Source: Chloroflexota bacterium (GTDB taxonomy: Bacteria; Chloroflexota; UBA6077; SHYK01). Taken from it: 64,000 bases of DNA. The notes beneath the pieces are model-generated. The model ran no database searches, was not told the origin of the DNA, and saw only the letters and a program-made list of their open reading frames with translations. The position numbers and the translations under genes were made by a program. Positions 15,850 to 32,075 of the stretch are shown here, in pieces. The stretch is taken from NCBI GenBank assembly GCA_035652535.1, contig DASRDP010000152.1, positions 1 through 64,000 on the forward strand, read 5' to 3'. The number at the start of each line of letters is the position of its first letter. Within the stretch, counting starts at the first letter, position 1.

Positions 15850-15858
15850 GATTGTATC
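15850..15858 (-). promoter_or_regulatory. Extended -10 element upstream of DinB gene
   Basis: Reading leftward, TGATACAAT lies 27 nt before the ATG at 15823, overlapping the stop codon of the Rieske gene. Confidence 0.4.
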
Positions 15859-17110
15859 AGAGCGTCAGCGGCAGCTCGTCGAACGCCGCGTCTCGCGATG
15901 CCAGGAACGCGGCCGAGCGCACGCGGTAGGCCCCACCCCTCGCGGCGGCGATGGGCTCGACGCCGCGCTCGAGGTCGGCGATCGACCGGAGGAGGAGCCT
16001 CCGCATCGAGATGATCGCCGTGTCGCTCGAGCCGAGGTGCTCCATCGTGCGGTCTGCGATCGGTCCGTGCTGGTCTTCCTGGACGGCCAAGTCCTGCTCC
16101 CGAATTCCCCGGATGCCGGTGAAGGAATCGTGCCGCTGCTTCTCGCGATCGATCAGGTAGTCGTTCGCCATGTTGGCGACCGGGAAGAACGTACGAGGGT
16201 CCACTTCGGCGTAGATCCCCGTCCAGGATTCGATTCGCGCGACGTCTTCGGACGTGAGCGGGCGGTCCGGTCGCCACGTCACCGTGTAGCCCCACATGTG
16301 TGTGTCATCGATGGGGATCGCCGCGGTGAAGCTGATCGGGGATCCAGGCTCGCTGGGGATCATCGTGTAGGAAGGCATGAGGAACTGCGTGACGCGCCAG
16401 TAGTACTGCCCATCGTCCCAGTTTCGCCGGGCGCCGATCACCAGTCCGTAGTCCGTTTCCCGGACGTCGAACGTCGGCGCAAAGTGGCGCGCTCGGCTCA
16501 GAAGCCGCTGGCCCGACACCGTCGCCCCGTCGTAGTCAGGCCGAAGCGAACGGTGGAGGAAAGACACGTGGCTCGAATCAACCTCGCCTTCCACGTTTTG
16601 CAGATAGCTCGACGCCTGGAACCGCTTGTGCACGTATCGGTGGCTTTCCGGAACGAGCGTCCACTCCAGCTCCGGCAGGTGCGGGACGCGGTCTGCGGGG
16701 CCCATGTAGGTCCAGAGGATCCCCCCGCGCTCGACGCACGGATAGGCCAGGTGTCGGACTCGATCCTTGAAGCTGCTTGCGGGCGGCTCGTTTGGCATGT
16801 CGACGCAACGGCCCTCGGTGTTAAATTTCCAGCCGTGATACACACAGCGCAGGCCTCCCTCCTCGTTGCGCCCGAAGAAGAGGCTCGCACCACGGTGCGG
16901 ACAGTGGACACCGAGCAGGCCGACGAAACCCCGCGTGTCGCGAAAGGCAACGAGGGGCTCACCCAGCAGCGTGACCCGCACGGGCGTGCAGTCGGGCTCC
17001 GGAAGCTCCGAGGAGAGGAGGACCGGCAACCAGAACCGCCGGAACAGCTCCCCCATTGGGGTCCCCGCGGAAACGCGCGTTAGCCGTTCGTTTTCCTCAC
17101 GCGAAAGCAC
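15857..17110 (-). CDS. Rieske aromatic-ring oxygenase, alpha subunit (phthalate 4,5-dioxygenase type)
   Basis: A 417-residue oxygenase component that would activate O2 to hydroxylate or demethylate an aromatic substrate using electrons from a separate reductase. Rieske [2Fe-2S] ligands are Cys70, His72, Cys89 and His92 (CPHRG and CVYHGW). The mononuclear iron site follows with Asp178, His181 and His186 (DSSHVSFLH). The GTG at 17110 with GGGGAGGG just upstream is chosen because the protein then starts MLSREENE, like its paralogue at 29371 (MLSKEENE). No reductase gene is nearby. It is divergent from the chemosensory operon. Confidence 0.88.
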   Translation of the reverse strand: MLSREENERLTRVSAGTPMGELFRRFWLPVLLSSELPEPDCTPVRVTLLGEPLVAFRDTRGFVGLLGVHCPHRGASLFFGRNEEGGLRCVYHGWKFNTEGRCVDMPNEPPASSFKDRVRHLAYPCVERGGILWTYMGPADRVPHLPELEWTLVPESHRYVHKRFQASSYLQNVEGEVDSSHVSFLHRSLRPDYDGATVSGQRLLSRARHFAPTFDVRETDYGLVIGARRNWDDGQYYWRVTQFLMPSYTMIPSEPGSPISFTAAIPIDDTHMWGYTVTWRPDRPLTSEDVARIESWTGIYAEVDPRTFFPVANMANDYLIDREKQRHDSFTGIRGIREQDLAVQEDQHGPIADRTMEHLGSSDTAIISMRRLLLRSIADLERGVEPIAAARGGAYRVRSAAFLASRDAAFDELPLTL

Positions 17111-17189
17111 GGCGCCCTCCCCGATCGCGGCCGGCTGGAATTCCGCCAGACTCGGCACTGGTGTGAACAAGAGCACACAATCGAAACAG

Positions 17190-17208: not shown

Positions 17209-17240
17209 TTGGCCGTAGCATGATAGGCCCGAGGCGCGTG

Positions 17241-17738
17241 ATGGTGGCCATGGCAGGCGCAGCGGCGAGCGCCATTCGCGTCGTCGTATTCAGGCTCGAC
17301 ACCCAGTCGTATGCGGTGTCCCTCGACTCTGTCATTCGGGTGGAGCGCATGGTCGCCGTCTCCCCGTTGCCGCGCGCGCCGCACGTGTGCCTCGGCGTCG
17401 TCAACGTGCACGGACAGATCGTACCGGTTCTCGACCTCCGCCGCCGGCTCGGGCTCGCTCCGCGCGCGTACGGGGTCGACGCACAGCTTCTCATCGCCAG
17501 AACGTCGGCGCGCACCGTGGCGATTCCCGTCGACGCGGTGACGCGCGTCGAAAGCGCGGCGCAGCTTCAGGTCACCCCAACGCGAGACATCGTGCCGGGC
17601 ATCGAGCACGTCGAAGGGATTCTCCCCATCGGTGACGAGCTCCTCTTCATCCACGACGTCGAACGATTCCTCTCGAAGTCCGAAGAACGAGAGATCCAGG
17701 CCGCCATTGAAGGGATGGGCGATGCGGGTCACGCCTGA
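17241..17738 (+). CDS. cheW: CheW-type coupling protein (WspB-like)
   Basis: A 165-residue CheW-domain adaptor linking receptors to CheA. The double SH3-like core is visible from IRVVVFRLDTQSYAVSL through VERMVAVSPLP, GVVNVHGQIVPVLDLRRR and VDAVTRV to GDELLFIHDVERFL. ATG 17241 has GAGG 7 nt upstream and sits right before the domain; 17220 is an alternative. First gene of the operon; its 3' end overlaps cheR by 17 bp, suggesting coupled translation. The position before CheR-TPR parallels wspB. Confidence 0.86.
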   Translation: MVAMAGAAASAIRVVVFRLDTQSYAVSLDSVIRVERMVAVSPLPRAPHVCLGVVNVHGQIVPVLDLRRRLGLAPRAYGVDAQLLIARTSARTVAIPVDAVTRVESAAQLQVTPTRDIVPGIEHVEGILPIGDELLFIHDVERFLSKSEEREIQAAIEGMGDAGHA

Positions 17739-19302
17739 AGCGCTGGAGCGGGCCCGGCAGATCATTGCCGCACGCTTCGGCCTCGATGTTCCGGACAGCC
17801 GAATGGAGGACCTACGCCGCGGACTCCAGAAGGTGCTCCACGCCGGATCGCCGGACCTCGGCGTGCTCCAGCTCGCAGGACTGCCGGACGACAGCCCGGT
17901 GTTCGGCGAGCTGATGCCGTGGCTGACCATCGGCGAGACCTATTTCTTTCGCGACCGCGCCTGTTTCGACGCGCTGGAGCGCAGCATCCTGCCCGCCTTG
18001 ATCGCAGAGCGCCGCGGCGCTGGGGCCCAATTCATCCGCGTTTGGAGCGCCGGCTGCGCCAGCGGTGAGGAGCCATATTCGTTGGCGATCGTTCTCGACC
18101 GCCTGCTGCCGGATCGAGATCGCTGGTCCATTTCAATCCTGGCTTCGGACATCAATCCGCGCGCCCTCGAGACCGCGCGCGAAGGGCTGTATCGCTCCTG
18201 GTCCCTCCGCGACACGCCAGACGCCATCATATGGACGTACTTCCGCGAGCGGGGGGACCAGTTGTTCGAGGTGGACCCGCGCATTCGCGAGATGGTGACC
18301 TTCACCCGGCTCAACCTTGCCGCCGACCGCTATCCCAGCGACAACCCGGACGCCACCGGCCTCGACTTGATCTTCTGCAAGAACGTCCTGATGTACTTCA
18401 CCCGCGATGCGCGCGAGGCGGCGGCGCGCCGACTGGGCCGTGCCCTGGCTCCGAACGGCTTTCTGGCGGTTAGTCCTGCCGAGACGTCAATCGAGCTGTT
18501 CCATCCGCTCGTGAGCGCATCATTTCCCGGCGCCGTCTTCTACCGCAAGTCCTCCGAGACCTGGGCCTCGTCCGGGGAGCAATCCGCCGCGCCACAGCAG
18601 CTGATCGGCGGACCGGCCGCCTCATCGACCCTCGATCCGCCACCGATCTGGTACCCTGCGCCGACGCCCGGACCCTTCGAGCTCCGTGACGATCATCCGC
18701 CGGTCGCAGCCGATGTGGCCCTCGCCGCCCCCGCTTCGGAGTCGGCGGACGCAGCCCTCGCCGCCCCCGCTTCGGAGTCGGCGGACGCAGCCCTTCCCGA
18801 TCACGTCGACCCGGCGACCGACACGACGGCGGAGCCCCGGACCGACGATGGTCCGGACAACGCCGTCGTTCGGTTGATGGAGCGCGCGCGGGCAGCGGCC
18901 GACGGGGGGGACCTGGCCGCCGCGCGCGTCGCGTGCGCGGCGGCGCTGGCAGCGGACCCGCTGTTCCTCGCGGCGCACCTGCTCATGGCAGATATCGCGC
19001 GCGAGACAGGAGACATCGGCGCGGCCCGCGAAGCATTGCAGCGGGCGATCTTTCTCGCTCCGCGGGCCGCCGCCGCCCACTTCGCCCTGGGCACGCTCCT
19101 GATTCGACACGGGCTCCACGCCGAGGGACGGCGTTCGTTGCGCGCGGCGATCGGCATCCTCGAAGCGCAGCACCCGGATGCTCCGGTGGAGGGCAGCGAA
19201 GGCCTTACGGCAGGCCGAATCGTCGAGATCGCCCACGAGCTTCTCGACGCAGGATCGGCGACCGATCCTGCGCAGCCGCGGGGAAGGGTGCTGGATGCAT
19301 GA
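17722..19302 (+). CDS. cheR: CheR methyltransferase with C-terminal TPR repeats (WspC-like)
   Basis: A 526-residue receptor glutamate methyltransferase. The N-terminal helical domain (residues 1-80) leads to LTIGETYFFRD, then the SAM site VWSAGCASGEEPYSLAI (about 105-120) and FCKNVLMYF, all CheR hallmarks. After residue 270 comes a Pro/Ala-rich linker with a duplicated 12-residue unit, then about 110 residues of TPR-like helices (AADPLFLAAHLLMADIARETG, APRAAAAHFALGTLL). The CheR-plus-TPR layout matches WspC and FrzF. It overlaps both neighbours (17 bp with cheW; ATGA with the second cheW). Confidence 0.87.
   Translation: MRVTPEALERARQIIAARFGLDVPDSRMEDLRRGLQKVLHAGSPDLGVLQLAGLPDDSPVFGELMPWLTIGETYFFRDRACFDALERSILPALIAERRGAGAQFIRVWSAGCASGEEPYSLAIVLDRLLPDRDRWSISILASDINPRALETAREGLYRSWSLRDTPDAIIWTYFRERGDQLFEVDPRIREMVTFTRLNLAADRYPSDNPDATGLDLIFCKNVLMYFTRDAREAAARRLGRALAPNGFLAVSPAETSIELFHPLVSASFPGAVFYRKSSETWASSGEQSAAPQQLIGGPAASSTLDPPPIWYPAPTPGPFELRDDHPPVAADVALAAPASESADAALAAPASESADAALPDHVDPATDTTAEPRTDDGPDNAVVRLMERARAAADGGDLAAARVACAAALAADPLFLAAHLLMADIARETGDIGAAREALQRAIFLAPRAAAAHFALGTLLIRHGLHAEGRRSLRAAIGILEAQHPDAPVEGSEGLTAGRIVEIAHELLDAGSATDPAQPRGRVLDA
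18718..18789 (+). repeat. Tandem 36-bp duplication inside cheR linker
   Basis: Two exact consecutive copies of a 36-bp unit encode ALAAPASESADA twice in the linker between the methyltransferase and TPR regions. The identity at every base points to a recent slippage or unequal-exchange event, in frame. Confidence 0.85.
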
Positions 19303-19889
19303 TTGACGCCTCTGGGATGCCAGACCCGACCGAGCCCCTGGCTCGTGCGATGGGCCGAGCGGAAGTGGGCGGCGCCCTGCCGGCCGGCGCGTCGGTCGCC
19401 GAGGTGCTGCTGGAGCGCGCGCGCGCCCTGGCCCGGCCCATCGAGACCGGTCCGGTCCGACTTGAGCGCGGCCGGGTTCTCCTCTTCACCCTCGGCGCCC
19501 AACGATTCGCGGTGGACGTTGGCGCGGTCGAGGCCGTCATTCGCATCCCATCGATCACGCAGGTCCCGGGCGCGCCCGACGCGATTGTCGGTATTGCGCT
19601 TCACCGCGGCAACGTGATCCCGATCGTGGACGTTCGCTCGTTCTTCGGAGAGATTCGGAGCGGCGACCACGGGTTCGGCGTCGTCGTCCGCGCGAGCGAC
19701 GGCCCCTATGGCCTCCTTGCGGACGAGGTCGTCGGCGTCGTCCCGCACGGGATCGTCGAGGCCCCGGCCTCCAGCGACGATGCGCAGCGACCGTCCGCCG
19801 TGACGCGGGTCGGCGACGAGGTGGTGGTCATGCTGGACCCCGACGCCATTGCGCGCGATCCGCGAGTGGTCGTGGACGAATCACTATGA
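19299..19889 (+). CDS. cheW: Second CheW-domain coupling protein (WspD-like)
   Basis: A 196-residue CheW protein with a roughly 60-residue N-terminal extension before the CheW fold, which runs from RVLLFTLGAQRFAVDVGAVEAVI to GDEVVVMLDPDAI. WspD likewise is a longer CheW encoded after the CheR-TPR gene. The ATG overlaps the cheR stop by ATGA. Its extended N-terminus (DPTEPLARAMGRAEVGGA) is unassigned. Confidence 0.84.
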   Translation: MIDASGMPDPTEPLARAMGRAEVGGALPAGASVAEVLLERARALARPIETGPVRLERGRVLLFTLGAQRFAVDVGAVEAVIRIPSITQVPGAPDAIVGIALHRGNVIPIVDVRSFFGEIRSGDHGFGVVVRASDGPYGLLADEVVGVVPHGIVEAPASSDDAQRPSAVTRVGDEVVVMLDPDAIARDPRVVVDESL

Positions 19890-19902
19890 GAGGGAGGACG
19901 CC

Positions 19903-21483
19903 GTGAACTGGACTGTCGGTCAGCGCATAACCGCCGGCTACGCGGTCATTCTGCTACTTCTGGCCATCGTGGCGGGCGTGGGAATCTTCTCGCTGCCGCG
20001 CACGACGGACGCGCTGAGCGCGGCATTGCACGAGCAGGGCCAGGAGCTGAGCGGAACCTTGACGCGGCGGGAGAGCCTCAACTCCGCGCTCGCCGACTTC
20101 CTCGAATACCTGATCGCCCCGAGCAGCGATTCGCTGGCCGCGTGGCGCACTGCCATGGACAGCACGAGAAAGACGACAGTTGAGCTCCGCGACCAGAGCC
20201 CCTCGCCTGAGCTGAAGTCTTCCTGGAACGACGTATTGACCACGACGGACGAGTGGCAGAAGTCCATGCAGCGAGCCGTGGACGCGAAGGCGGCCGGCGA
20301 CGACGCGACTGCGGTTCGCATCGCGACGACCGATGTAATTCCGGTCCGCGCCCAGCTCAGCCAGCAGGTCGATCGCCTCAACAGCGGCGCCCTGGCGCGC
20401 CTCACCGAGTCCAGCAATGCCGCCACGGACAACGCATCTCGCGCATTCTGGCTCATGCTGTTCGTCGGCATCGTCGCCTTCGTCGCCGGGTTGGCCATCG
20501 CGTGGGCCCTAACGCGGTCCATCACCGCGCCGCTGCGGGCGACAGTGAACACCCTCGCATCCGCCTCCACGGAGATCCTCGCCGCGACGACCCAACAGGC
20601 GAGCGGCGCGGCAGAGGAAGGGGCGGCGGTTCAGGAGACGACCACGACGGTGGAGGAAGTGAAGCAGACGTCGCAGGTCTCGCTGCAGAAGGCTCAGGCC
20701 GTTGCGGAGACCGCGCAGAAGACGGTCCATATTTCGCAGGAGGGCCAGCGCGCGGTCAGCGAGACCAGCCAGGGCATGCAGGAGCTGAAGGGCCGAATGG
20801 AGGGCCTCGCGCAGCGGATCCTGGCCGTGAGCGACCAGAGCCAGGCAATCGGCGAGATCATGGCCACGGTGAACGACCTGGCCGAGCAATCGAACCTGCT
20901 CGCGGTCAACGCGGCCATCGAAGCCGCCAAGGCCGGCGAGGCCGGGGCGGGCTTTGGCGTCGTCGCCTCCGAAGTAAAAGCGCTTGCCGAGCAATCGAAG
21001 CAAGCCGCCGCCCAGGTCCGCGGGATCTTGAATGAGATTCAGCGGGCCACCCAGGCGGCCGTCCTGGCCGCGGAACAGGGCGTGAAGGCCTCCGAGGACG
21101 CCGAGGCCGTGGCCAACCGCGCCGGCGATGCCATTCGCGTGCTCGCCGACGGCCTGAACGAGTCTGCCCAGGCCGCCCAGCAAATTGTCGCGTCGGTCCA
21201 GCAGGGCGTCGTCGGCATCGACCAGGTGTCCCTTGCCATGCAGAACATCCAGCAGGCGTCCTCCCAGAACATGGCCTCGACGCGACAGGTGGAGCGGGCC
21301 GCGGCCGACCTAAATGAGCTTGCCCGCGGGCTCCGCGATCTCGTCGCGCGGGAGCCGTCCACCAACGGCCGCGCGTACGCGGCGGCCCGTGGCATCGGTG
21401 GCGCCCGATCCAGGGTCGCGGCCCGCACCGATGCCGCCGACGCGGGCGGCGACGGGACGGTCGCGGCGGGACGCTCCGGTTGA
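19903..21483 (+). CDS. Methyl-accepting chemotaxis receptor (WspA-like)
   Basis: A 526-residue receptor with membrane segment 1 at about residues 11-31, a periplasmic/extracellular helical sensor (four-helix-bundle style) at 32-180 and membrane segment 2 at about 181-203. The signalling hairpin tip is clear (LAEQSNLLAVNAAIEAAKAGEAGAGF...). After segment 2 only the first element of a HAMP domain (RSITAPL) is recognisable; the second HAMP helix appears missing. No C-terminal CheR-tethering pentapeptide is present. The GTG start has GGGAGG 5 nt upstream, 13 nt after cheW. Confidence 0.88.
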   Translation: MNWTVGQRITAGYAVILLLLAIVAGVGIFSLPRTTDALSAALHEQGQELSGTLTRRESLNSALADFLEYLIAPSSDSLAAWRTAMDSTRKTTVELRDQSPSPELKSSWNDVLTTTDEWQKSMQRAVDAKAAGDDATAVRIATTDVIPVRAQLSQQVDRLNSGALARLTESSNAATDNASRAFWLMLFVGIVAFVAGLAIAWALTRSITAPLRATVNTLASASTEILAATTQQASGAAEEGAAVQETTTTVEEVKQTSQVSLQKAQAVAETAQKTVHISQEGQRAVSETSQGMQELKGRMEGLAQRILAVSDQSQAIGEIMATVNDLAEQSNLLAVNAAIEAAKAGEAGAGFGVVASEVKALAEQSKQAAAQVRGILNEIQRATQAAVLAAEQGVKASEDAEAVANRAGDAIRVLADGLNESAQAAQQIVASVQQGVVGIDQVSLAMQNIQQASSQNMASTRQVERAAADLNELARGLRDLVAREPSTNGRAYAAARGIGGARSRVAARTDAADAGGDGTVAAGRSG

Positions 21484-21516
21484 TCGGGAAACGAGGGGGA
21501 GCACGAGGCTAGAACC

Positions 21517-23754
21517 ATGACGGGGAGAGATGCGCAGCTCCGAGAGCGCCTGATGGCCACGTTCAAGGCCGAAGCAGAGGAACTGAGCCACGTTCTGATG
21601 GCGAACCTCAATTCGATGGCGCAAGGAGCGTCGGGCGAGGCGGGGCGCCAGCTCGTCGAGTCGACTTTTCGGTCGGCGCACACCCTCAAGGGCGCGGCCC
21701 GCTCGGTGGGTATGCGCCAGATCGAGTCGCTCTGCCAGTCGATAGAGACGATCCTTCGGGGCCTCACCCGCGACGAGGTGCAGCTTTCACCCAGCCTTAT
21801 CTCGCTTCTCACCGAAGGCGTGCGCGGCGTCAGCCACCTCCTCGCCGGAGACGACGCCGCCTTCCTGGAACCCCTCGTGGCCAGACTCGACGCTGTCCCG
21901 CGCGGAGGTCAGCCCGGCCCCGATGGCGCCGACGCCTCGTCGGCCGTCCCACCGATGCCGGAGGCGCAGGCTGAGGCATCGGCCGCGCGCCCGGCCATCA
22001 CTCCGGACACGCTGCGCGTCGCCCGGTCCAAGCTCGACGCCCTCTTTTTCCAGAGCGAGGAATTTCTCCTCCACAAGCTGCGGGCCGCGGAGCGCCGGAG
22101 GAGCGCGGAGGTGTTGGCCGAGGTGCTCACCCAATGCCAGCGCGATGGCAACGCGGCGGATATCGCGGCGGCCGTCTCCCTCGTGCAGCAGCTCGTGAGC
22201 GACTTGCGCGCCGACGAACGGGACGTGGTGCACGCCGTCGATGCGCTGCATCGTGAAACGCGCCAGCTCCGTCTAGCGCCGGCATCGGTGATTCTGAACG
22301 TCTTTCCCGGGATGGTGGTCGACCTCTGCGCGGAGCAGGGCAAGGTCGTGGATCTTGCGATCCAGGGATCCGAGATCGAAGTTGACCTGCAGATCCTCGA
22401 GGCGGTGAAGGACCCCCTCATCCACCTCGTCCGAAATGCCGTCGACCACGGCATCGAAGCGCCACCGGCGCGTCAGCGCGCGGGGAAGAGCGATCGGGGC
22501 CGTATCGACTTGAGCGTGGGCATCGGATCCGATGGTCGCGTCGAGTTCTCTGTCCGCGACGATGGGGCGGGGATCGATCCGGCCAAAGTCCGCGCCGCGG
22601 CGGTTCGCGGAGGCTTCCTGAAGGCGGAGTCCGCGGAGGCGCTCGCCGACGACGCTGCGGTCGACCTCCTGTTCCTGTCGGGCCTCAGCACGAGCAGCGT
22701 CATCACCCAGATCTCCGGCCATGGGCTCGGACTGGCCATCGTCCGCGAGCGCGTCGAAGCCCTGGGCGGCTCCGTCCGCGTCGAGAGCCAGGTCGGCGTG
22801 GGGACCAGCATTCGGCTGGCGCTGCCGGCGAACGTGGCGACCTTACGCGGACTCCTCGTTCGGGCCGGCGGGTCCTCGTTCCTCATCCCCCTGGACGCCG
22901 TGCAGCGGATAATCCGTGCCGATGAGCAGACCATCCAGCGCGCCGAGGGCCGCGACGTGATGGTCTTGAGCAATCGGGACGTCGTTCCTGTGGCCGCGCT
23001 CGCGCAGCTCCTGAGCCTGCCGGGCGGCACGGCGAACGGCCGCTCGGGGCGCGCCAACGGCCAAGCCACCCCTTCGTTTCGCGACGAGTTTGAGACGACG
23101 GCCCAGCTCGCCGTTCTCTTGAAGGTCGCCGATCAATCGGCCGTCGTGCTCGTCGATGCGATCGAGGGCGACCGAGACGTTCTCGTCAAGGAGATGCGGC
23201 CGCCGATGGCGCGGGTGCGACACGTCCAAAGCGCGGGGCTGCTTGGAAGTGGCGAGCTGGTCTTGAACCTCCGACCAGGCGATCTGATTCGGTCCGTTCG
23301 CTCGAAGCCGTCGATGGAACCTCGGCGAGCATCGGAAGACGAATCGCCGCCGCCGTTGATCCTGGCCGCGGACGACTCCATCACGACGCGGTCCTTGATG
23401 CGGAACATTCTCGAAGCCGCCGGCTACCGGGTGCGGGTCGCGGTGGACGGCATGGATGCGTGGACGACGCTGAAGAGCGAACGATGCGATCTCCTCGTCT
23501 CCGACGTGGACATGCCGCGCATGAACGGCTTCGAGCTGACGGCCCGGGTGCGGCGCGATCCCGCCCTCGAGTCGCTCCCGGTCGTTCTCGTCACGGCCCT
23601 CGATTCGCGCGAGGACAAGGAGCGAGGAATCGAAGCCGGCGCCAACGCCTACGTCGTGAAATCAGACATGGAGCAGTCGAACCTTTTGGAGATCATCCGT
23701 CGGCTCGTTGATTCCCCGAGCGTCGGCGGGTCCGGGGGGGTGGCTCGCCGATGA
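21517..23754 (+). CDS. cheA: CheA histidine kinase fused to a receiver domain (WspE-like)
   Basis: A 745-residue hybrid CheA. The HPt domain has phospho-accepting His55 in SAHTLKGAARS. The catalytic ATPase domain shows the N box LVRNAVDHGIE (from 305), DDGAGIDP and GHGLGLAIV; the CheW-like P5 region follows (about 430-610). The C-terminal receiver has acidic pair ADDS and phospho-Asp663 in LLVSDVDMPRMNG. No clear P2 domain is seen. CheA-REC fusions mark Wsp, Frz and other alternative-function systems rather than simple flagellar chemotaxis. The stop overlaps cheB by ATGA. Confidence 0.9.
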   Translation: MTGRDAQLRERLMATFKAEAEELSHVLMANLNSMAQGASGEAGRQLVESTFRSAHTLKGAARSVGMRQIESLCQSIETILRGLTRDEVQLSPSLISLLTEGVRGVSHLLAGDDAAFLEPLVARLDAVPRGGQPGPDGADASSAVPPMPEAQAEASAARPAITPDTLRVARSKLDALFFQSEEFLLHKLRAAERRRSAEVLAEVLTQCQRDGNAADIAAAVSLVQQLVSDLRADERDVVHAVDALHRETRQLRLAPASVILNVFPGMVVDLCAEQGKVVDLAIQGSEIEVDLQILEAVKDPLIHLVRNAVDHGIEAPPARQRAGKSDRGRIDLSVGIGSDGRVEFSVRDDGAGIDPAKVRAAAVRGGFLKAESAEALADDAAVDLLFLSGLSTSSVITQISGHGLGLAIVRERVEALGGSVRVESQVGVGTSIRLALPANVATLRGLLVRAGGSSFLIPLDAVQRIIRADEQTIQRAEGRDVMVLSNRDVVPVAALAQLLSLPGGTANGRSGRANGQATPSFRDEFETTAQLAVLLKVADQSAVVLVDAIEGDRDVLVKEMRPPMARVRHVQSAGLLGSGELVLNLRPGDLIRSVRSKPSMEPRRASEDESPPPLILAADDSITTRSLMRNILEAAGYRVRVAVDGMDAWTTLKSERCDLLVSDVDMPRMNGFELTARVRRDPALESLPVVLVTALDSREDKERGIEAGANAYVVKSDMEQSNLLEIIRRLVDSPSVGGSGGVARR

Positions 23755-24905
23755 TCCGCGTCGTCCTCGTGGAAGACTCGCCGACGACCAGAGAGTATCT
23801 GACATCGATCCTGGATGGCGATCCCGAGCTTCGCCTGGTCGGCACGGCGCGCGATGGCTCTGAGGGAGTCCAGCAGGTCCTCAGCCTGAGGCCAGACGTC
23901 GTGCTCATGGACGTCCACATGCCGCGCATGGGCGGCTACGAGGCCACGCGCCAGATCATGGAGCGCGCGGCAACGCCCATCGTGCTCATCAGTGCGAGCT
24001 TCAACGCGGCCGAGGTGGCGATGACCTTCCAGGCGTTGGAAGCCGGCGCCCTCACCGTCGTCGAGAAACCGGCCGGCCCAGGGGACCCGTTGGCGGACGA
24101 GTCGGCGCAGAAGCTGCTCCAGACTCTCCGACTCATGGCCGAGGTGCGCGTCGTCCATCGCTGGCCGCGGCGAAACGGCTCAACCGGCGGCGCAACCGGC
24201 CCCGCTCTGACGAGCGGCAACGACCCAACAGCCGTCGATGGTCGGTCGGAACAGGCGCACGCGATCCTGCTCCCGAGCCGGCGCACCCGCCTCATCGCGA
24301 TCGGCGCATCGACGGGCGGCCCCAATGCCCTGTCGCGCATCCTGGGCGCACTCCCATCGGCCTTTGACATCCCGATCATCGTCGCGCAGCACATTACGCC
24401 GGGCTTTGTCGATGGGCTGGCCGACTGGCTGGGCCAATGCACGCCGATGAGGGTGAAGATCGCGGAGTCGGGAGAGCCGCTCCGAGGCGGCACCGTGTAC
24501 CTCGCGCCGGCCGATTGCCACGTGGGCGCCGGCCCGGGCCGCATTCGACTGAGCAATGGGCCGTCGGACGACGGGTTCTATCCATCGGCGACTGAGCTGT
24601 TTCGTTCCGCCGCCCTGGCGTACGGACCTTCGGCCGTCGGCGTGCTCCTCACCGGCATGGGCCGCGACGGCGCGGCTGGCCTCCTGGCCATGCGTCGAGT
24701 CGGCGCACTGACGATTACCCAGGACCGAGAGAGCTGCGTCGTCTACGGAATGCCCGCGGAGGCCGTTCGGCTCGGCGCTGCCCAATACGTGCTGTCGCCC
24801 GAGGACATCAGCGTCCTCCTGGGACGTGTCGCCAGACAGAGGCCCGGCTACGACGCGCCCGTCCCACCGTCCGACGCCCTCGAGCGTCCGGGCAGCCGCC
24901 CATGA
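23751..24905 (+). CDS. cheB: CheB protein-glutamate methylesterase (WspF-like)
   Basis: A 384-residue response-regulator methylesterase that resets receptor methylation. The N-terminal receiver has phospho-Asp54 (VLMDVHMPRMGG). A linker at about 130-175 leads to the esterase domain with catalytic Ser187 (GASTGGP), His214 (AQHITPGF) and Asp306 (GMGRDGA). All three catalytic residues are intact. It is translationally coupled on both sides by ATGA overlaps (23751-23754, 24902-24905). Confidence 0.92.
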   Translation: MIRVVLVEDSPTTREYLTSILDGDPELRLVGTARDGSEGVQQVLSLRPDVVLMDVHMPRMGGYEATRQIMERAATPIVLISASFNAAEVAMTFQALEAGALTVVEKPAGPGDPLADESAQKLLQTLRLMAEVRVVHRWPRRNGSTGGATGPALTSGNDPTAVDGRSEQAHAILLPSRRTRLIAIGASTGGPNALSRILGALPSAFDIPIIVAQHITPGFVDGLADWLGQCTPMRVKIAESGEPLRGGTVYLAPADCHVGAGPGRIRLSNGPSDDGFYPSATELFRSAALAYGPSAVGVLLTGMGRDGAAGLLAMRRVGALTITQDRESCVVYGMPAEAVRLGAAQYVLSPEDISVLLGRVARQRPGYDAPVPPSDALERPGSRP

Positions 24906-26629
24906 CCGAGCGCATCCTCGTCGTCGAAGACAGCCAGACCCAGGCGGAGCTGGTTCGCCTCGTCCTCGAGGACGAGGGCTACCAGGTTGTCGTCGCCGAA
25001 AATGGCCGGGTGGCGTTGGAGCGAATCAAAGAATCGCCGCCAGATTTGGTGCTCTCCGACATCATGATGCCTGAGATGGATGGCCACGAGCTGTGCCAGG
25101 CGATGAAGGCCGACGAGGGCACGCGGGTCATCCCGGTCGTGATGCTGACCTCGCTTCAGGCCCAGCACGATCGGATTCGAGCCCTCGAGAACGGCGCCGA
25201 CGATTTTCTGAGCAAGCCGGTGGACCCCGACGAGCTGGTGGCGCGCGTTCGGTCGCTCCTTCGCCTCAAAGCCGTGTACGACAAGCTCCTCCAACATGAC
25301 CAGCGCGAGACCCAGCGTGTGCTCGTAGCGGAGGACAGCCGCACCGAAGCGGAGAACCTTCGCGCACTCCTCGAAGAGGCTGGGTACGAGATCGAGCTGG
25401 TCACCGATGGCCGCAGCGCCCTCGCCCGCGCCCGCGCCGCCCCGCCGGACCTCGTCCTCACCGACGTGATCATGCCCGAGATGGATGGCGTCGCCTTCTG
25501 CCGGGCGCTGAAGGCTGCCGATGCGACGCGGCGCATCCCCGTGATCATGCTGACCTCCCTCCAGGAGCGGGGAGATCGCATCTTGGCCCTCGAGGCCGGC
25601 GCCGACGATTTCCTCACCAAGCCGATCGATCGTGCGGAGCTGCTGGCCCGCGCCCGATCGCTCCTCCGTCTGAAGGCGTTGCACGACCAGCTCACCCAGC
25701 GCGGCGACGAGATCGCGCGCCAGGCCGAGGAGCTGGCCAAGACGAACGCCGAGCTGGTCCAGCTCACCGTCGAGCTGGAAGATCGCGTGGCGGCTCGGAC
25801 CGCCGAGCTCGAGTCCAAGACGGAGGAGCTGAAAGCGACCTCGCAGCAGCTCTGGCAAACGGCCAAATTGGCGACGATGGGAGAGCTCGCGGCGAGCGTG
25901 GCCCACGAGCTGAACAACCCGCTCGCGACCGTGAGCCTGCGCATCGAATCCATGCTGGCTTCGACCGCCGAGGATGACCAGCGGCGGCGCTCCCTCGAGA
26001 TCGTCGACGCCGAAGTCGAACGCATGGCTCGGCTCGTCGCGCGGCTCCTGGAATTCAGCCGGCATACCGAGCGGCAGATCAGCACCATCGATCTCCCATC
26101 GGAGATCGCGAACTCCCTCGAGCTGGTCCAAGGGTACGTCCGTAACCGCCGCGTAACGCCGGTTACGGAGTATGCGTCGGGCCCCCTCACGATCCTCGCC
26201 GATCGTCAACAGCTCCGTCAGGTGCTCTTGAACCTCATCACGAATGCGTGCGATGCGATGGAGTCCGGAGGAACGCTGACCATTCGCGTCTATCGCGAAG
26301 ATTCAGCCGCCGTCCAGCTCGCTCCTGACCGCCGCACCGACAACGGCGGTCAGGAAGGCCGTCCGACCGTCGTCATCGAGATCGCGGACACAGGGTCTGG
26401 GATCTCGCCGGCCGATCTGGCACGGGTGACGGAGCCGTTCTTCACGACCAAGCCCGAAGGGAAGGGCACCGGCCTCGGGCTCGCCATCTGTCGGCGGATC
26501 GTGCAGGAGCATGCCGGGAAGCTCGAGATCGCCAGCGAAGTCGGCGTCGGCACGACGATTCGCGTAAAACTTCCCGCCCCGGAGACGGGCCCGAATGGAG
26601 GCGGTCGCGGCAACTATGGACCAGCATAA
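24902..26629 (+). CDS. Multi-receiver histidine kinase, REC-REC-HisKA-HATPase
   Basis: A 575-residue soluble kinase in the place where wspR would be. Receiver 1 has phospho-Asp53 (LVLSDIMMPEMDG); receiver 2 has Asp188 (LVLTDVIMPEMDG). The receivers and their following linkers (SLLRLKAVYDKL, SLLRLKALHDQL) are so alike that they look like an internal duplication. A coiled coil (about 265-320) precedes the dimerisation His335 (SVAHELNNPLATVS); the ATPase shows LITNACDAMESGG, DTGSGI and GTGLGLAIC. No membrane or DNA-binding part. It overlaps cheB by ATGA, so it belongs to the operon. Confidence 0.9.
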   Translation: MTERILVVEDSQTQAELVRLVLEDEGYQVVVAENGRVALERIKESPPDLVLSDIMMPEMDGHELCQAMKADEGTRVIPVVMLTSLQAQHDRIRALENGADDFLSKPVDPDELVARVRSLLRLKAVYDKLLQHDQRETQRVLVAEDSRTEAENLRALLEEAGYEIELVTDGRSALARARAAPPDLVLTDVIMPEMDGVAFCRALKAADATRRIPVIMLTSLQERGDRILALEAGADDFLTKPIDRAELLARARSLLRLKALHDQLTQRGDEIARQAEELAKTNAELVQLTVELEDRVAARTAELESKTEELKATSQQLWQTAKLATMGELAASVAHELNNPLATVSLRIESMLASTAEDDQRRRSLEIVDAEVERMARLVARLLEFSRHTERQISTIDLPSEIANSLELVQGYVRNRRVTPVTEYASGPLTILADRQQLRQVLLNLITNACDAMESGGTLTIRVYREDSAAVQLAPDRRTDNGGQEGRPTVVIEIADTGSGISPADLARVTEPFFTTKPEGKGTGLGLAICRRIVQEHAGKLEIASEVGVGTTIRVKLPAPETGPNGGGRGNYGPA

Positions 26630-26706
26630 CGGAGCAGACCGACATCTCCGCCGACGCTGCGCGGGCGGCGGACGGATTCGATCGCGTCCGCTACGCGGAT
26701 TGTGAG

Positions 26707-29325
26707 GTGGGCCGAGTGGTAGGACAGCCAGCATTGGGGCGCGTCCTGGTCGTCGACGACGAAACTGAGCTGATGTCGACCCTGTGCGAGATGCTCTCCG
26801 CCCAGAACTACGAGGCGGTGGGCTACACGTCACCCAAGGAGGCCTTGGACGCGCTGACGGAGCAAGACTTCGACCTCCTGTTGTCCGATCTCAGCATGCC
26901 GGAGATGGACGGCATCGAGCTGCTTCGACGGGCCCTCGAGCTGGACCCGCTCATCGTGCCGGTCATCATGACCGGCCAGGGATCAGTCCAGACCGCGGTC
27001 GAGGCGATGAAGAGCGGCGCCTTCGACTATCTGCTGAAGCCTTTCAAAATCAGCTCACTCCTTCCGCTGCTCAGCCGATGCATGGACGTGCGTCGGCTTC
27101 GCCTCGAAAACGTCCAGCTCCGCGAAACCCTCGCCATTCACGAGCTCAGCAAGGCCGTCGCCATGACGCTCGACCTGAACTCGATCCTCAACAAAGTCGC
27201 GGACGCCGCGGTGCAGCAGTGCGAGGCAGACGAGGTGTCCATCATGCTGCCGACGCGCGATGGCCGCGAGCTCTACGTTGCGGCCGTCCGCGGCGCCCAG
27301 CGCGACCACATCCTTGGCCAACGCGTGCCCTTCGATCGCGGCATCGCCGGGTGGGTCGCCCAGCACCTGGAGCCGCTGACATTGACCGGGGAAGTGAAGG
27401 ATCCGCGCTTCACCTCCGCACACCCGCGACCGGAGATTCGGTGGGCCATCTCGATGCCGATGATGGTGGGCGGCAAGCTCGTGGGCATTCTCAACGTGAA
27501 CGCGCTGCAGCGCCGCGCGTTCACCCTGGGTCAAGTCAAAGCCCTGAGCATCCTCACGACGACCGGCGCCGCCGCGCTGGAGCACACCGGCCTGTATCTG
27601 GAGGCGCGCGAGGCTGAAGCGCGCTACCGTTCGATCGCGAGCCGCCTCGCAGCCATCAACGAGTTCTCCCGGGCCGTGGGAAGCACGCTCGATCTGAAGA
27701 GCCTCTTCGGCATCATCCTGCACCACGTCTCCGCGCTGACCGAGTGCCGCTCGTGCAGCATTGCCCAGCATGACCCCTTCTCGGAATCGTTCCACGTGGT
27801 CGCGTTCTGGGAGCGCGACGGCGGCGCCGTTGTCGGTGAGCCCGACGGCGCGGAGGAGCGGGTCGTGGTCCAGGCGCCCTCGGAGGTGGGTGAGATCCGA
27901 GGCCGAAGCCCTATCGTCATCGAGGATACGCGCCAGTCGGATCAAGATCGCGTGCGGCGATTTGCCGAGCAATCGGTGCTGTCGCTGGTCTCTGTCCCGG
28001 TGGAGATCAATGGACGGCTCTGGGGAATCCTCAGCGTGGGATTCGAAGAAGTCAACGCGGCAACGCCGGACCGGGTGGAATTCCTCGGCGCCATCGCGTC
28101 CCACCTGGCCGTAGCCATCAAGAACGCGGAGCTGTACAGCCAGCTCCAGGACGCGTACGACGAGCTGCACGAAACGCAGCGGCGCGTGGTCCAGCAAGAG
28201 CGGTTGAGCGCGCTCGGTCAGATGGCCAGCGGCATCGCCCACGACCTCAACAACGCGCTGGTGCCGGCCCTGGGGTTCACCGAGCTGCTCCTCGATCGCC
28301 CCGACGGCCTCGACGATCACGACAAGGTCCGCGAGTATCTCAAGCTCGTGCAGACCGGCGCCCAGGATGCCGCCAAGATCGTCGGCAGGTTGCGCGAGTT
28401 TTACCGGGAGCGGAAAGACGATGAGGTCTTCGCCCCCGTCAGTCTCAACGTGATTGTCGAACAGGCGGTATCGCTGACCCAGCCGCGCTGGAAGGACCAG
28501 GCGCAGGCGAAGGGCGTCACCATTCGCGTCGTCACGGACCTCGCGAACGTGCCTCCCATCCTGGCCAGCGGAGCGGAGCTGCGCGAAGCAGTGGCGAATC
28601 TCATCTTCAACGCCGTCGACGCCATATCGGAGAGCGGGACGATCACGCTGCGCACGCGCCATGATGGCGGCTCGGTGTTCCTCGATGTCGCGGACACCGG
28701 AGTGGGGATGAGCGAGGAGGTGCGGCAACGCTGTCTCGAGCCATTCTTCTCGACCAAGGGCGAGCAGGGCACAGGTCTTGGTCTGCCAATGGTCTATGGC
28801 ATCGTGCAGCGACACGAAGGAAATGTCGAAATCGAAAGCGAGGAGGGTGTCGGCACGCGATTCAGCCTCGAGTTTCCCGTGCCTCGTGGCGCGGGAGCCG
28901 CGGATGATGACACCGCCCCCGGCCTGCAACAGAACCAGCTCCGCGTGCTTGTCGTGGACGACGAGCAGATGGTTCGCGAGGTTGTCGCCCAGTACCTGGC
29001 CAGCGACGGTCACACGGTTGAGACGGCGTCCAACGCGGCGGACGCGATGCAGCTCTTCAGCGAATCCGCGTTCGACCTGGTCATCACCGACCGAGGGATG
29101 CCGGAGATGACCGGCGATCAGATGGCCGGGGCGATGAAACAGACCCACCCCAACATCCCGATTATTCTGCTCACGGGGTTCGGCGACCTCATGCGGGCGA
29201 GTGGTGATCGGCCCTCATCGGTCGACGAGATCGTGAGCAAGCCCGTGCGAATCGCTGTGCTCCGGCAATCGATCGCGCGGCTCACCGCTGATCGAGCGGA
29301 CGCCCGCGCCCGCCAGTCCGACTGA
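26707..29325 (+). CDS. Hybrid histidine kinase, REC-GAF-GAF-HisKA-HATPase-REC
   Basis: An 872-residue soluble sensor kinase. Receiver 1 has Asp61 (LLLSDLSMPEMDG). Two GAF domains follow (about 150-300 and 320-480; RGIAGWVAQH and VSVPVEINGRLWGILSV are typical). The phospho-accepting His512 is in GIAHDLNNALVP, the ATPase has LIFNAVDAISESG and GTGLGLPMV, and a terminal receiver has Asp795 (LVITDRGMPEM). The GAF domains could bind a small ligand or cyclic nucleotide. The GTG start is 77 nt after the previous stop; starts a few codons downstream are possible. Probably the last gene of the chemosensory operon. Confidence 0.88.
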   Translation: MGRVVGQPALGRVLVVDDETELMSTLCEMLSAQNYEAVGYTSPKEALDALTEQDFDLLLSDLSMPEMDGIELLRRALELDPLIVPVIMTGQGSVQTAVEAMKSGAFDYLLKPFKISSLLPLLSRCMDVRRLRLENVQLRETLAIHELSKAVAMTLDLNSILNKVADAAVQQCEADEVSIMLPTRDGRELYVAAVRGAQRDHILGQRVPFDRGIAGWVAQHLEPLTLTGEVKDPRFTSAHPRPEIRWAISMPMMVGGKLVGILNVNALQRRAFTLGQVKALSILTTTGAAALEHTGLYLEAREAEARYRSIASRLAAINEFSRAVGSTLDLKSLFGIILHHVSALTECRSCSIAQHDPFSESFHVVAFWERDGGAVVGEPDGAEERVVVQAPSEVGEIRGRSPIVIEDTRQSDQDRVRRFAEQSVLSLVSVPVEINGRLWGILSVGFEEVNAATPDRVEFLGAIASHLAVAIKNAELYSQLQDAYDELHETQRRVVQQERLSALGQMASGIAHDLNNALVPALGFTELLLDRPDGLDDHDKVREYLKLVQTGAQDAAKIVGRLREFYRERKDDEVFAPVSLNVIVEQAVSLTQPRWKDQAQAKGVTIRVVTDLANVPPILASGAELREAVANLIFNAVDAISESGTITLRTRHDGGSVFLDVADTGVGMSEEVRQRCLEPFFSTKGEQGTGLGLPMVYGIVQRHEGNVEIESEEGVGTRFSLEFPVPRGAGAADDDTAPGLQQNQLRVLVVDDEQMVREVVAQYLASDGHTVETASNAADAMQLFSESAFDLVITDRGMPEMTGDQMAGAMKQTHPNIPIILLTGFGDLMRASGDRPSSVDEIVSKPVRIAVLRQSIARLTADRADARARQSD

Positions 29326-29370: not shown

Positions 29371-30663
29371 CTATCCGGCCCGCTGCTCCGCGAGCCCACG
29401 CTCCGCCGTCAGATCTTCGGCGGTCAAGGCCATGTGCGGGAAGTGCCCGTGCCAATCCGACCCATCGTCCTCGATGACACCGTAGGTCGCGTTGGCGTGG
29501 CGGAAGTCGTTCCGCTCGAAGTCCCGGACGAGGTGCGGCGGCTCTCTTCCGTCCTGCAACGCCTTGATGGCATCCAGGAGGTACCGGCGCACGGCGATCA
29601 CTCCTTTGTCGCTCGCCCCTAGGTGCTCCCGGCTTCGATCGAAGAGAGGCCCCATCGACTCGGTCGCGCAGGAGTCGTGCGTGAGGAAGTCGGTCATCCC
29701 GGTGAAATTGACGGCGCGCTGCATCTCGCGGTCCTGAAGGTAGTGGTTGTCCGCGTTGGGAATCCGTCGATAGTCCGGACCGATCACCAGGCGACGATGG
29801 ACGTCGGCGTCGGTGACAACGCGACTTCGACGAAAGCCAAAGTCGAACCGCCAACTGTGCGTGTCGTCGATCGGCGTGTAGAAGTGCACTTCGTACCCGT
29901 CGAGGTTTCCCGACGCGTCCCGGGTGCCAACCGGGACCGCCACCCCGACCGGCATGATCTGAGCCGAAACGCGGACGTAGCGCTTGCCGGGACCCGCCTT
30001 TCGCGTCGCGATGAGTCGCATGCCGAAATCGGCTTCCTCGGTCTCATAGGCCGGCGCCGAGTCACTCTGGTACAGGCTTTGGTCGCCATCGCGGCTAAAG
30101 GTCCGGTGGAGGAACGAGAGGTGCGAGGAATCGCACTCCCCCTCGAGCCCCTGCAGATAGTTGCACGACTGGTACGCCTTGGTCACGTACGTGTGGTCAG
30201 TCGGAACCTGGGTCCAATCGTAGTTGGGGAACAGCGGCATCCGCTCGCGCGGGCCCAGATATGCAAAGATGATCCCGGCCACCTCGTGAGTCGGGTAGGC
30301 GGGGTGGCGGAGCTTCTCCTTGAAGCGGCTGCCGGCCGGCTCGGCGGGCGTATCGACGACGTGGCCCTCGACATCGTACTTCCACCCGTGGTAGACGCAG
30401 CGGAGCCCGCACTCTTCATTCCGGCCGTAAAACAGCGACGTGCCGCGGTGGTGACAATGCTCGTCCAGCAGACCGATGCGGCCGTTCGTGTCGCGAAACG
30501 CCACCAGCTCCTCGCCCAGGATCCGGACTTGGACCGGCGGCGAGTCCGGCGTTGGGATCTCCTCGGTGAGCAGGGCCGGGATCCAATACCGTCGCATGAG
30601 ATTTCCCATCGGAGTGCCAGGCCCGGCCCGAGTGATCAGCTCGTTTTCTTCCTTCGACAGCAT
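29371..30663 (-). CDS. Rieske aromatic-ring oxygenase, alpha subunit (paralogue)
   Basis: A 430-residue paralogue of the oxygenase at 15857. Rieske ligands fall at the same positions, Cys70, His72, Cys89 and His92 (CHHRG and CVYHGW), as does the iron site Asp178, His181 and His186 (DSSHLSFLH). The start is ATG 30663 with AAGGAGG 9 nt upstream; the long frame beyond it is not coding. It is convergent with the chemosensory operon, with a 45-bp gap. No reductase or beta subunit is adjacent, so it probably uses a shared electron donor encoded elsewhere. Confidence 0.88.
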   Translation of the reverse strand: MLSKEENELITRAGPGTPMGNLMRRYWIPALLTEEIPTPDSPPVQVRILGEELVAFRDTNGRIGLLDEHCHHRGTSLFYGRNEECGLRCVYHGWKYDVEGHVVDTPAEPAGSRFKEKLRHPAYPTHEVAGIIFAYLGPRERMPLFPNYDWTQVPTDHTYVTKAYQSCNYLQGLEGECDSSHLSFLHRTFSRDGDQSLYQSDSAPAYETEEADFGMRLIATRKAGPGKRYVRVSAQIMPVGVAVPVGTRDASGNLDGYEVHFYTPIDDTHSWRFDFGFRRSRVVTDADVHRRLVIGPDYRRIPNADNHYLQDREMQRAVNFTGMTDFLTHDSCATESMGPLFDRSREHLGASDKGVIAVRRYLLDAIKALQDGREPPHLVRDFERNDFRHANATYGVIEDDGSDWHGHFPHMALTAEDLTAERGLAEQRAG

Positions 30664-30793
30664 CTGCCCTTTCCTCCTTGGCGGTTCGGGTCCCGACGGG
30701 TAGCGGTGCCGGTAGTGTAGCGCACGCCGCTCCTTGGCTAGCGGGACGTCCGTGTACCATCTTGGAGTAGCTCGATGCGAAGGACGCGAACCC

Positions 30794-31093
30794 GTGGCAC
30801 GTCGCAGACGACGCTCGTCACCACGACCAATCCCTCCGCTTCCCCGCGCCGTCGAGCGCGGGCATCCCGCGCCGCCGGCGCGCGGGAGCATCGCGCCGAC
30901 GATCGTGTGGGGCGTCGCGGCGTCGTTCACCACCGCGCTCCTGGTGATCGTCGCCCTCCTGCCGTTCTCCCAGCCGCACCTCCCCGGAACGCGCTGGAGA
31001 TTTGCCGGAATGATCCTCATCCTCGCAGTCATTACGCTGGCGCTTGCCCTGAAGGCGCTGCAGGCATTCCTTAACTGGAAGGACCCCGACTGA
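30794..31093 (+). CDS. Small two-helix membrane protein
   Basis: About 99 residues: an Arg/Pro-rich cytoplasmic head followed by two hydrophobic segments (APTIVWGVAASFTTALLVIV and GMILILAVITLALALKALQA). No family recognised. The GTG at 30794 is a plausible start; a TTG at 30734 would add 20 residues of poor quality. The gene ends 7 nt before the EamA transporter start, so the two are probably co-transcribed. Confidence 0.6.
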   Translation: MARRRRRSSPRPIPPLPRAVERGHPAPPARGSIAPTIVWGVAASFTTALLVIVALLPFSQPHLPGTRWRFAGMILILAVITLALALKALQAFLNWKDPD

Positions 31094-31100
31094 GCGCGCG

Positions 31101-32075
31101 GTGCACGGCGCCGACGGCGCGCAACAACCCGCGCCGGTGGGGCCGGCGGCGAACGACGTGACGGCACGCTCGGCGGCGCAGATTGGCTCGCACGGGCTCG
31201 ACCTCGCCGGGCTCGTCAACCTCGCCGTCGTGTATCTCGGATGGAGCGGCACGTACGTGGCGATTCGCTTCGCGGTGCGCGAGGGGTCAGGATTCCCGCC
31301 CTTCAGCCTGATCGCCGCGCGGCTTCTCGTTGCCGGCGTCGTCCTCCTCGGGTGGGCCGCGGCGCAGCGGGACCGCATCCGGCCGACCGGGCGGGAACTT
31401 GCCGCCCTCACCGTGTCGGGCGTGCTGCTCTGGGGCGGCGGAAACGGCCTCGTGGTGTGGGCCGAGCAGCGCGCCGGCGCGGGGTACGCGGCCCTGTTGA
31501 TCGCCACGACCCCGATCTGGGCATCGCTGATCACGGCCCTCCTGAATCGGCGACCTCCGACGCCCCTGCTCGCCGCCGCGCTCGTGGTCGGCTTCGCCGG
31601 CGTGGCGACCCTGGCCGCCCCGGTCCTCTCCGGCGGCTCCTCAGCCGACGTCTACGCGCTCCTCGCCCTCTTGCTGGCTCCGGCGACGTGGGCCTCGGGG
31701 TCCGTGCTCCAGGCGCGGCGGAGCGTGCCGATGTCGTCCATCGCGACCGCCGCGCACCAGCATCTGATCGGCGGGGTCCTCTTCGTCGGGCTCGCCCTCG
31801 TGGCACGGGAGCCGATGCCCAATCCGACGATGGAGGCGTGGCTTGGGTGGGGGTACCTCGTCGTGTTCGGCTCCTTGGTGACGTTCACGTCGTATCTGCG
31901 CGCCCTCAGGCTCCTCCCCACGAGCGTCGTGATGACGTACAGCTACGTCAACCCCGTGGGCGCCGTCGTCCTGGGTGCGCTCCTGCTCGGGGAAGCGGTG
32001 TCAGGCTGGACGGCCGCCGGCGCGGGCCTGGTCCTGCTCGGCGTCGCTGGTGTGTTTCGCAGCAGGCCGGCGTGA
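31101..32075 (+). CDS. EamA/DMT-family transporter
   Basis: A 324-residue inner-membrane protein with ten predicted helices arranged as two EamA repeats. The first includes WSGTYVAIRFAVREG and GLVVWAEQRAGAGYAALLIATTPIW; the second includes TFTSYLRALRLLPTSVVMTYSYVNPVGAVVLG. Members export amino acids or other metabolites; the cargo is not predictable. It starts with GTG and follows the two-helix protein by 7 nt. Confidence 0.86.
   Translation: MHGADGAQQPAPVGPAANDVTARSAAQIGSHGLDLAGLVNLAVVYLGWSGTYVAIRFAVREGSGFPPFSLIAARLLVAGVVLLGWAAAQRDRIRPTGRELAALTVSGVLLWGGGNGLVVWAEQRAGAGYAALLIATTPIWASLITALLNRRPPTPLLAAALVVGFAGVATLAAPVLSGGSSADVYALLALLLAPATWASGSVLQARRSVPMSSIATAAHQHLIGGVLFVGLALVAREPMPNPTMEAWLGWGYLVVFGSLVTFTSYLRALRLLPTSVVMTYSYVNPVGAVVLGALLLGEAVSGWTAAGAGLVLLGVAGVFRSRPA

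What the first reader, a model, noticed from the sequence alone, without database searches (positions are those of the whole stretch)
17241..29325. Wsp-like chemosensory operon whose output is two multi-receiver histidine kinases
Seen: CheW, CheR-TPR, CheW, receptor, CheA-REC, CheB, REC-REC-HK, REC-GAF-GAF-HK-REC, in one strand with ATGA or larger overlaps at five junctions. Known: the Pseudomonas Wsp pathway uses WspA (receptor), B (CheW), C (CheR-TPR), D (CheW), E (CheA-REC), F (CheB) and the diguanylate cyclase WspR. Here the set B-C-D-A-E-F is complete but no GGDEF protein, CheY or flagellar gene follows. Inference: the array signals into soluble hybrid kinases, giving a receptor-to-phosphorelay cascade that differs from both flagellar chemotaxis and Wsp.
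Basis: partly seen in the sequence, partly recalled or inferred. Interest (0 to 1): 0.88.

Follow-up and report, generated by a model that had tools for sequence, protein, structure and literature searches.

The report
Chemosensory operon with histidine-kinase outputs
This is a non-swimming relative of the bacterial chemotaxis machinery that hands its signal to two further sensor kinases; that general design is already known and common, and the new detail is that the kinase pair behaves like a swappable output cassette also found in Nitrospirota and Thermodesulfobacteriota.

Summary
The gene order is real: CheW, CheR-TPR, CheW, receptor, CheA-REC, CheB, REC-REC-HK, REC-GAF-GAF-HK-REC, all intact. 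It is not Wsp proper: there is no WspR, and the genome lacks FliP. But a CheA-REC/CheB operon feeding receiver-kinases is a known, common design. R. centenum CheA3 phosphorylates CheS3, and about 40% of response regulators in CheR-TPR clusters carry a kinase. In 49 of 80 related loci I fetched, a REC+HK gene directly follows CheB, and 20 carry two or more kinases.

New here: the two kinases form a pair. The REC-HK + REC-GAF-X pair sits behind CheB in Nitrospirota and Thermodesulfobacteriota and stands apart from the che genes in a same-family genome. The CheA tree rejects common descent with those operons, so the pair moved as an output cassette. In the second protein REC-GAF is conserved while the output is HD-GYP or kinase. 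A receiver signature suggests series wiring, CheA to REC-REC-HK to the second kinase, rather than CheA to both. That wiring is inference. The final target is unknown.

The parts
17220..17738 (+). CheW1 (WspB/D-like coupling protein); alternative start 17241
   Evidence: PF01584 7.5e-26
17722..19302 (+). CheR methyltransferase with weak C-terminal TPR (WspC-like); overlaps CheW1 by 17 nt
   Evidence: PF01739 5.5e-48, TPR_16 4e-7; start
19299..19889 (+). CheW2; ATGA overlap with CheR
   Evidence: PF01584 2.6e-26; start
19903..21483 (+). Chemoreceptor with 4HB periplasmic domain and two TM helices; no full HAMP detected
   Evidence: PF12729 5.8e-9, PF00015 5.1e-29, no PF00672; TM at about residues 4 and 177
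21517..23754 (+). CheA-REC hybrid kinase: P1 His55, REC Asp663, no P2 detected
   Evidence: Hpt, HATPase_c, CheW, Response_reg; residues
23751..24905 (+). CheB: REC Asp54 plus methylesterase; ATGA overlap
   Evidence: PF01339 1.5e-58, PF00072
24902..26629 (+). RRHK: REC(D53)-REC(D188)-HisKA(H335)-HATPase; first output kinase, ATGA overlap with CheB
   Evidence: in a 100/98-supported HK clade with five post-CheB kinases and the G001 homologue
26707..29325 (+). RGGHR: REC(D61)-GAF-GAF-HisKA(H512)-HATPase-REC(D795); second output kinase
   Evidence: REC-GAF half 58-62% identical to the second gene of five other loci

Best explanation
A non-flagellar chemosensory operon of the 'alternative cellular function' type. 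The membrane receptor, two CheWs and CheA form the sensory array; CheR and CheB adapt it (inferred from family knowledge). CheA~P loses phosphate to its own REC and to CheB-REC, and passes phosphate to the receivers of the first output kinase, RRHK (inferred from R. centenum CheA3 to CheS3 and from receiver signatures). Phosphorylation of those receivers switches the RRHK kinase on or off. RRHK is the cognate kinase of the N-terminal receiver of RGGHR, so RGGHR is in effect a response regulator whose output is a second kinase, also tuned by whatever its GAF domains sense. RGGHR then passes phosphate through its C-terminal receiver or directly to a regulator encoded elsewhere (unknown). RRHK plus REC-GAF-X is a two-gene output cassette that has moved between che operons, with the output domain X exchangeable (HD-GYP or HK).
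For: Domains and catalytic residues are intact. Among 80 named CheA-REC loci, 49 have REC+HK directly after CheB. The RRHK kinase domain is in a supported clade (100/98) with the post-CheB kinases of L050, L088, L095, L101 and L106 plus the G001 homologue. RGGHR 1-300 matches the next gene in the same five loci at 58-62% (E 1e-117 or better; next unrelated hit 3e-27). Pfam shows HD-GYP or HK behind that REC-GAF. CheA of these loci is not one clade with the window's (p-AU 9e-37). Series wiring: the residue after the acidic pair is Ser in 87/90 CheA-RECs, 83/85 CheB-RECs and 54/54 N-RECs of the first post-CheB kinase, but in 0/66 C-RECs of kinases, 3/17 HD-GYP RECs and 13/38 N-RECs of other kinases. 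RRHK REC1 and REC2 have Ser; RGGHR REC1 and RECc have Glu. In G001, where the pair is unlinked from che, the RRHK receiver reads DDN, while the DHp and the partner's REC1 stay conserved. Direct precedent: CheA3 phosphorylates CheS3-REC1 and CheS3, not CheA3, phosphorylates CheY3 (PMC3868531).
Against: No biochemistry; phosphotransfer order is inferred. The Ser signature counts related sequences, is one position, and could mark ancestry rather than partner choice. The 80 loci were chosen by CheA similarity, and 'first kinase' was assigned by script. G001 is a broken assembly (80% complete): a gap of roughly 200 nt separates its two kinase contigs, and it has CheW-CheR at a contig end, so the pair is unlinked from che, not che-free. 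RRHK in the window has an extra N-terminal REC that the relatives lack. No target regulator was identified.
Confidence: 0.6

Rival explanations
1. Parallel fan-out: CheA phosphorylates receivers of both kinases directly, which then act as two independent outputs.
For: Both kinases lie in the operon and both have intact N-terminal receivers.
Against: RGGHR REC1 lacks the Ser signature seen in CheA-REC, CheB-REC and first-kinase receivers, and its relatives belong to HD-GYP-type regulators paired with a REC-HK. One same-phylum relative, G317, has REC-GAF-HD-GYP beside an ordinary HK and RR with no CheW or CheB in the genome.
Confidence: 0.2
2. The two kinases are an ordinary two-component pair that merely lies downstream of a complete che operon, and the che output goes to unlinked regulators.
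For: In G001 the pair is away from che genes. There is a 77-nt gap before RGGHR.
Against: ATGA overlap of CheB and RRHK; no CheY or other output in the operon; 49 of 80 operons have REC+HK in this very place; the first-kinase receivers share the CheA/CheB receiver signature.
Confidence: 0.15
3. A Wsp system whose diguanylate cyclase is encoded elsewhere: CheA signals to one of the seven GGDEF proteins and the kinases are accessory.
For: Wsp-like gene set; seven GGDEF genes elsewhere in the genome.
Against: No REC-GGDEF gene in the operon; only 5 of 80 related loci have REC-GGDEF after CheB. I did not check whether any of the seven GGDEF proteins carries a REC domain.
Confidence: 0.05

Closest known systems
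Rhodospirillum centenum Che3 pathway (CheA3-CheS3-CheY3; PMC3868531)
   Same: CheA-REC hybrid, two CheWs, CheR, CheB, one MCP, and a REC-REC-HK in the cluster; a che-type cascade that gates another kinase; non-flagellar function.
   Different: CheS3 has a PAS domain, a HWE kinase and a second receiver without its Asp (A191); RRHK has HisKA, no PAS and both Asp present. Che3 has CheY3 as target; here the operon has no CheY but a second REC-GAF-GAF-HK-REC.
Wsp pathway of Pseudomonas (WspA-F, WspR)
   Same: Same core set: receptor, two CheWs, CheR-TPR, CheA-REC, CheB, no flagellar genes.
   Different: Gene order B-C-D-A-E-F; no WspR (REC-GGDEF); two kinases instead. The receptor lacks a detectable HAMP.
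CheR-TPR / ACF chemosensory clusters (PMC3447774; Chloroflexi included)
   Same: CheR-TPR, multidomain response regulators with a HisKA-HATPase module (about 40% of RRs in such clusters), GAF and extra REC domains reported.
   Different: The conserved two-gene REC-HK + REC-GAF-X cassette and its exchange between operons is not described in the passages I read.
Nitrospirota locus L050 (SCQE01000055.1)
   Same: CheA-REC, CheB, REC-HK, then REC-GAF-...-HK in one strand: the same architecture.
   Different: Single REC on the first kinase; PAS domains in the second; followed by REC and REC-HD-GYP; CheA only 39% identical and in another clade.

Membership tests
Chemosensory system, ACF (alternative cellular function) class | Core MCP + CheW + CheA in one operon | tested here: met
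   Pfam hits above cut-off for MCPsignal, CheW and the CheA domains
Chemosensory system, ACF (alternative cellular function) class | Multidomain response regulators as output and CheR-TPR | tested here: met
   RRHK and RGGHR; CheR with weak TPR (TPR_16 4e-7, just below gathering score)
Chemosensory system, ACF (alternative cellular function) class | Not linked to flagella | tested here: met
   No FliP in a 98% complete genome; no motility gene beside the operon
Chemosensory system, ACF (alternative cellular function) class | CheA falls in the ACF clade of the reference CheA phylogeny | not tested
   No reference ACF model at hand; CheA groups inside 79 rows of Wsp-order loci (99% SH-aLRT)
Wsp pathway | Receptor, two CheWs, CheR-TPR, CheA-REC, CheB | tested here: met
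Wsp pathway | WspR, REC-GGDEF diguanylate cyclase, in the operon | tested here: not met
   No GGDEF in the operon or its flanks
CheA3-CheS3 type cascade (R. centenum Che3) | REC-REC-HK encoded in a CheA-REC operon | tested here: met
   RRHK 24902-26629
CheA3-CheS3 type cascade (R. centenum Che3) | Kinase of HWE type with PAS; CheY3 in cluster | tested here: not met
   HisKA kinase without PAS; no single-REC CheY gene in the operon
CheA3-CheS3 type cascade (R. centenum Che3) | CheA~P phosphorylates a receiver of the second kinase | not testable with these tools
   Needs purified proteins

The most novel reading that the evidence does not exclude
RRHK plus REC-GAF-X is a mobile two-gene output cassette for chemosensory arrays: the first kinase reads CheA through its receivers and always talks to the REC-GAF protein, whose output (HD-GYP or a further kinase) is swapped freely. 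In this organism it yields a three-kinase series (CheA, RRHK, RGGHR) running from one receptor.
Probability: 0.4. Interest if true: 0.6.

Novelty: new member of a known kind. Interest (0 to 1): 0.42.

Why it matters
It gives a clean example of how chemotaxis-type arrays are rewired to new outputs: the core and the output cassette have different histories, and the output domain of the last protein is exchanged while its receiver is kept. It also yields a simple testable rule: the residue after the acidic pair of a receiver (Ser for receivers of CheA, CheB and the first post-CheB kinase) may predict which receivers CheA feeds in the many uncharacterised operons of this kind.

Tried and rejected
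Idea that G001 has the kinase pair with no che genes at all: rejected, because G001 has CheW-CheR at a contig end; the pair is unlinked, not che-free. Idea that the whole operon was inherited as one unit with the Nitrospirota/Thermodesulfobacteriota operons: rejected by the CheA tree. Idea that the che core is native to the order: CheA groups with Solirubrobacter (Actinomycetota), not with four same-order operons (p-AU 0.011); weakly rejected. First HK tree was contaminated by CheA ATPase domains and was rebuilt without them. Plasmid search for the REC-GAF unit found nothing. An adenylate/guanylate cyclase gene follows the pair in G001; seven cyclases exist in the window genome, but nothing ties one to this operon. 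Promoter/terminator scan found no more than chance. Structure prediction was not run: domain assignments were already unambiguous.

Full report
WHAT IS THERE. The window lies in contig C152 (65 kb) of a 4.45 Mb, 98% complete assembly. I did not establish the organism's name; the genome set behind it suggests Chloroflexota, which is my inference only. Eight genes on the + strand, 17220-29325, encode CheW, CheR with a weak TPR, CheW, a 4HB chemoreceptor, CheA-REC, CheB, REC-REC-HK (here RRHK) and REC-GAF-GAF-HK-REC (here RGGHR). Neither output kinase has a transmembrane helix. Four junctions overlap clearly, so a single transcript with translational coupling up to RRHK is likely; a 77-nt gap precedes RGGHR. 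The flanks are Rieske/LigXa-type oxygenases and amidohydrolases, with no motility gene; the genome has no FliP.

HOW COMMON THE DESIGN IS. A scan of genome contigs with the CheA-REC gave 440 relatives, of which 80 were kept. Scoring their neighbourhoods with domain profiles built here, the gene directly after CheB is REC+HK in 49 of the 80, REC-GGDEF in 5, REC-HD-GYP in 2 and a receiver without recognised output in 11; the rest are cut, empty or lack a downstream CheB. Twenty of the 80 carry two or more kinases in the run after CheB. Phyla include Acidobacteriota, Nitrospirota, Bacteroidota, Thermodesulfobacteriota and methanogen-related archaea. The literature already holds the two key points. 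CheR-TPR clusters, in Chloroflexi among others, carry multidomain response regulators of which about 40% contain a kinase module (PMC3447774). In R. centenum CheA3 phosphorylates receiver 1 of the REC-REC-PAS-HK protein CheS3, and CheS3, not CheA3, phosphorylates CheY3 (PMC3868531). A 2008 Geobacter survey already grouped such CheA/Y clusters with P. aeruginosa cluster 3 and R. centenum cluster 3 (PMC2577667).

THE TWO KINASES ARE A PAIR. The kinase domain of RRHK forms a supported clade (ultrafast bootstrap 100, SH-aLRT 98) with the first post-CheB kinases of L050 (Nitrospirota), L088, L101 and L106 (Thermodesulfobacteriota) and L095 (uncultured delta), plus a homologue in the same-family genome G001. 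The next gene in those same five loci begins with a REC-GAF unit 58-62% identical to residues 1-300 of RGGHR, at E 1e-117 or better; the best match outside the group is 3e-27. What follows that unit differs. It is PAS domains plus HD-GYP in L088 and L101 by Pfam and HD-GYP in L106 by my profiles. It is PAS domains plus a kinase in L050. It is GAF-HK-REC in the window. The kinase-receiver half of RGGHR is instead closest to other hybrid kinases of its own class, including a REC-x-HK-REC that follows CheB in genome G023. RGGHR therefore looks like a REC-GAF front joined to a locally available HK-REC back. In 400 genomes drawn from the phylum, only four hold the REC-GAF unit at E below 1e-45: G000, G001, G004 and G317. 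In G317 it heads a REC-GAF-HD-GYP protein beside an HK and a LuxR-type regulator, and that genome has no CheW or CheB.

THE PAIR AND THE CHE CORE HAVE DIFFERENT HISTORIES. The window's CheA is sister to that of Solirubrobacter soli (100% SH-aLRT), whose own post-CheB kinase is of another lineage. Forcing the six pair-bearing CheAs together is rejected (p-AU 9e-37). Four same-order operons with the same core order carry an Hpt-REC gene after CheB, and their CheA does not group with the window's (p-AU 0.011). In G001 the REC-HK lies at the end of a contig whose upstream genes are lysS and serS by my reading of the translations, not che genes. Another contig begins with the last 66 residues of the same kinase (76% identical to RRHK 493-558), followed by the REC-GAF-GAF-HK-REC, a cyclase and a receiver. 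G001 does have CheW-CheR at the end of a third contig, so there the pair is unlinked from che, not without it. G004 has REC-CheW-CheR-CheW-MCP-CheA running off a contig.

WIRING. Receivers fed by different kinases differ in helix 1 (general knowledge of two-component specificity). In the collected loci, the residue after the acidic pair is Ser in 87 of 90 CheA receivers, 83 of 85 CheB receivers and all 54 N-terminal receivers of the first post-CheB kinase (two of them from the window). It is Ser in none of 66 C-terminal kinase receivers, 3 of 17 HD-GYP receivers and 13 of 38 N-terminal receivers of other kinases. Both RRHK receivers have Ser, like CheA-REC and CheB-REC. Both RGGHR receivers have Glu. 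In G001, where the pair stands apart from che, the kinase receiver has Asn, while its DHp domain (70% over 60 residues) and the partner's REC1 (65%) are kept. The simplest reading is a series: CheA to the RRHK receivers, which gate the RRHK kinase; RRHK kinase to RGGHR REC1; RGGHR kinase, tuned by its GAF domains, to an unknown regulator. Shown: domains, residues, gene order, synteny, trees and signature counts. Inferred: every phosphotransfer step, the sign of each step, and the final target. The counts include related sequences and rest on one position, so they are suggestive, not proof.

VERDICT. This is a new member of a known kind, the ACF-type chemosensory operon with kinase outputs. The pair behaving as a transferable output cassette with an exchangeable last domain was not described in the passages I read, and it is the part worth following.

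Noticed in passing
window 15857-17176 and 29371-31167 (both - strand): Two Rieske oxygenases with LigXa_C domains flank the operon on both sides, with amidohydrolases (13040-13966 +, 14096-15211 -) and a dienelactone hydrolase (32398-33324 -): an aromatic-degradation neighbourhood around a sensory operon.
   Followed up: partly
window 19903-21483: The receptor has a 4HB domain and two TM helices but no detectable HAMP; the MCP in contig C93 of the same genome has a HAMP.
   Followed up: no
L126 (G000:C93:84001-104000): Second chemosensory cluster of the genome: GAF-HD protein, CheW, CheA without REC, CheY, CheB, CheR and a large MCP, although the genome has no FliP.
   Followed up: partly
L120, L121, L124, L128 after CheB: In four same-order genomes the gene after CheB is scored Hpt-REC by my profiles, a different output from both GGDEF and kinase.
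   Followed up: partly
L142:2398-4016 (G001:C424): After the kinase pair in G001 come a class III nucleotidyl cyclase and a single receiver: a possible target of the pair there.
   Followed up: partly
L142:3-2782: The REC-GAF-GAF-HK-REC gene of G001 is read in two frames around position 450, either a real frameshift or an assembly error.
   Followed up: no
window 27055-29148 (- strand): A 697-aa open frame runs antisense to RGGHR; probably a by-product of 67% G+C.
   Followed up: no
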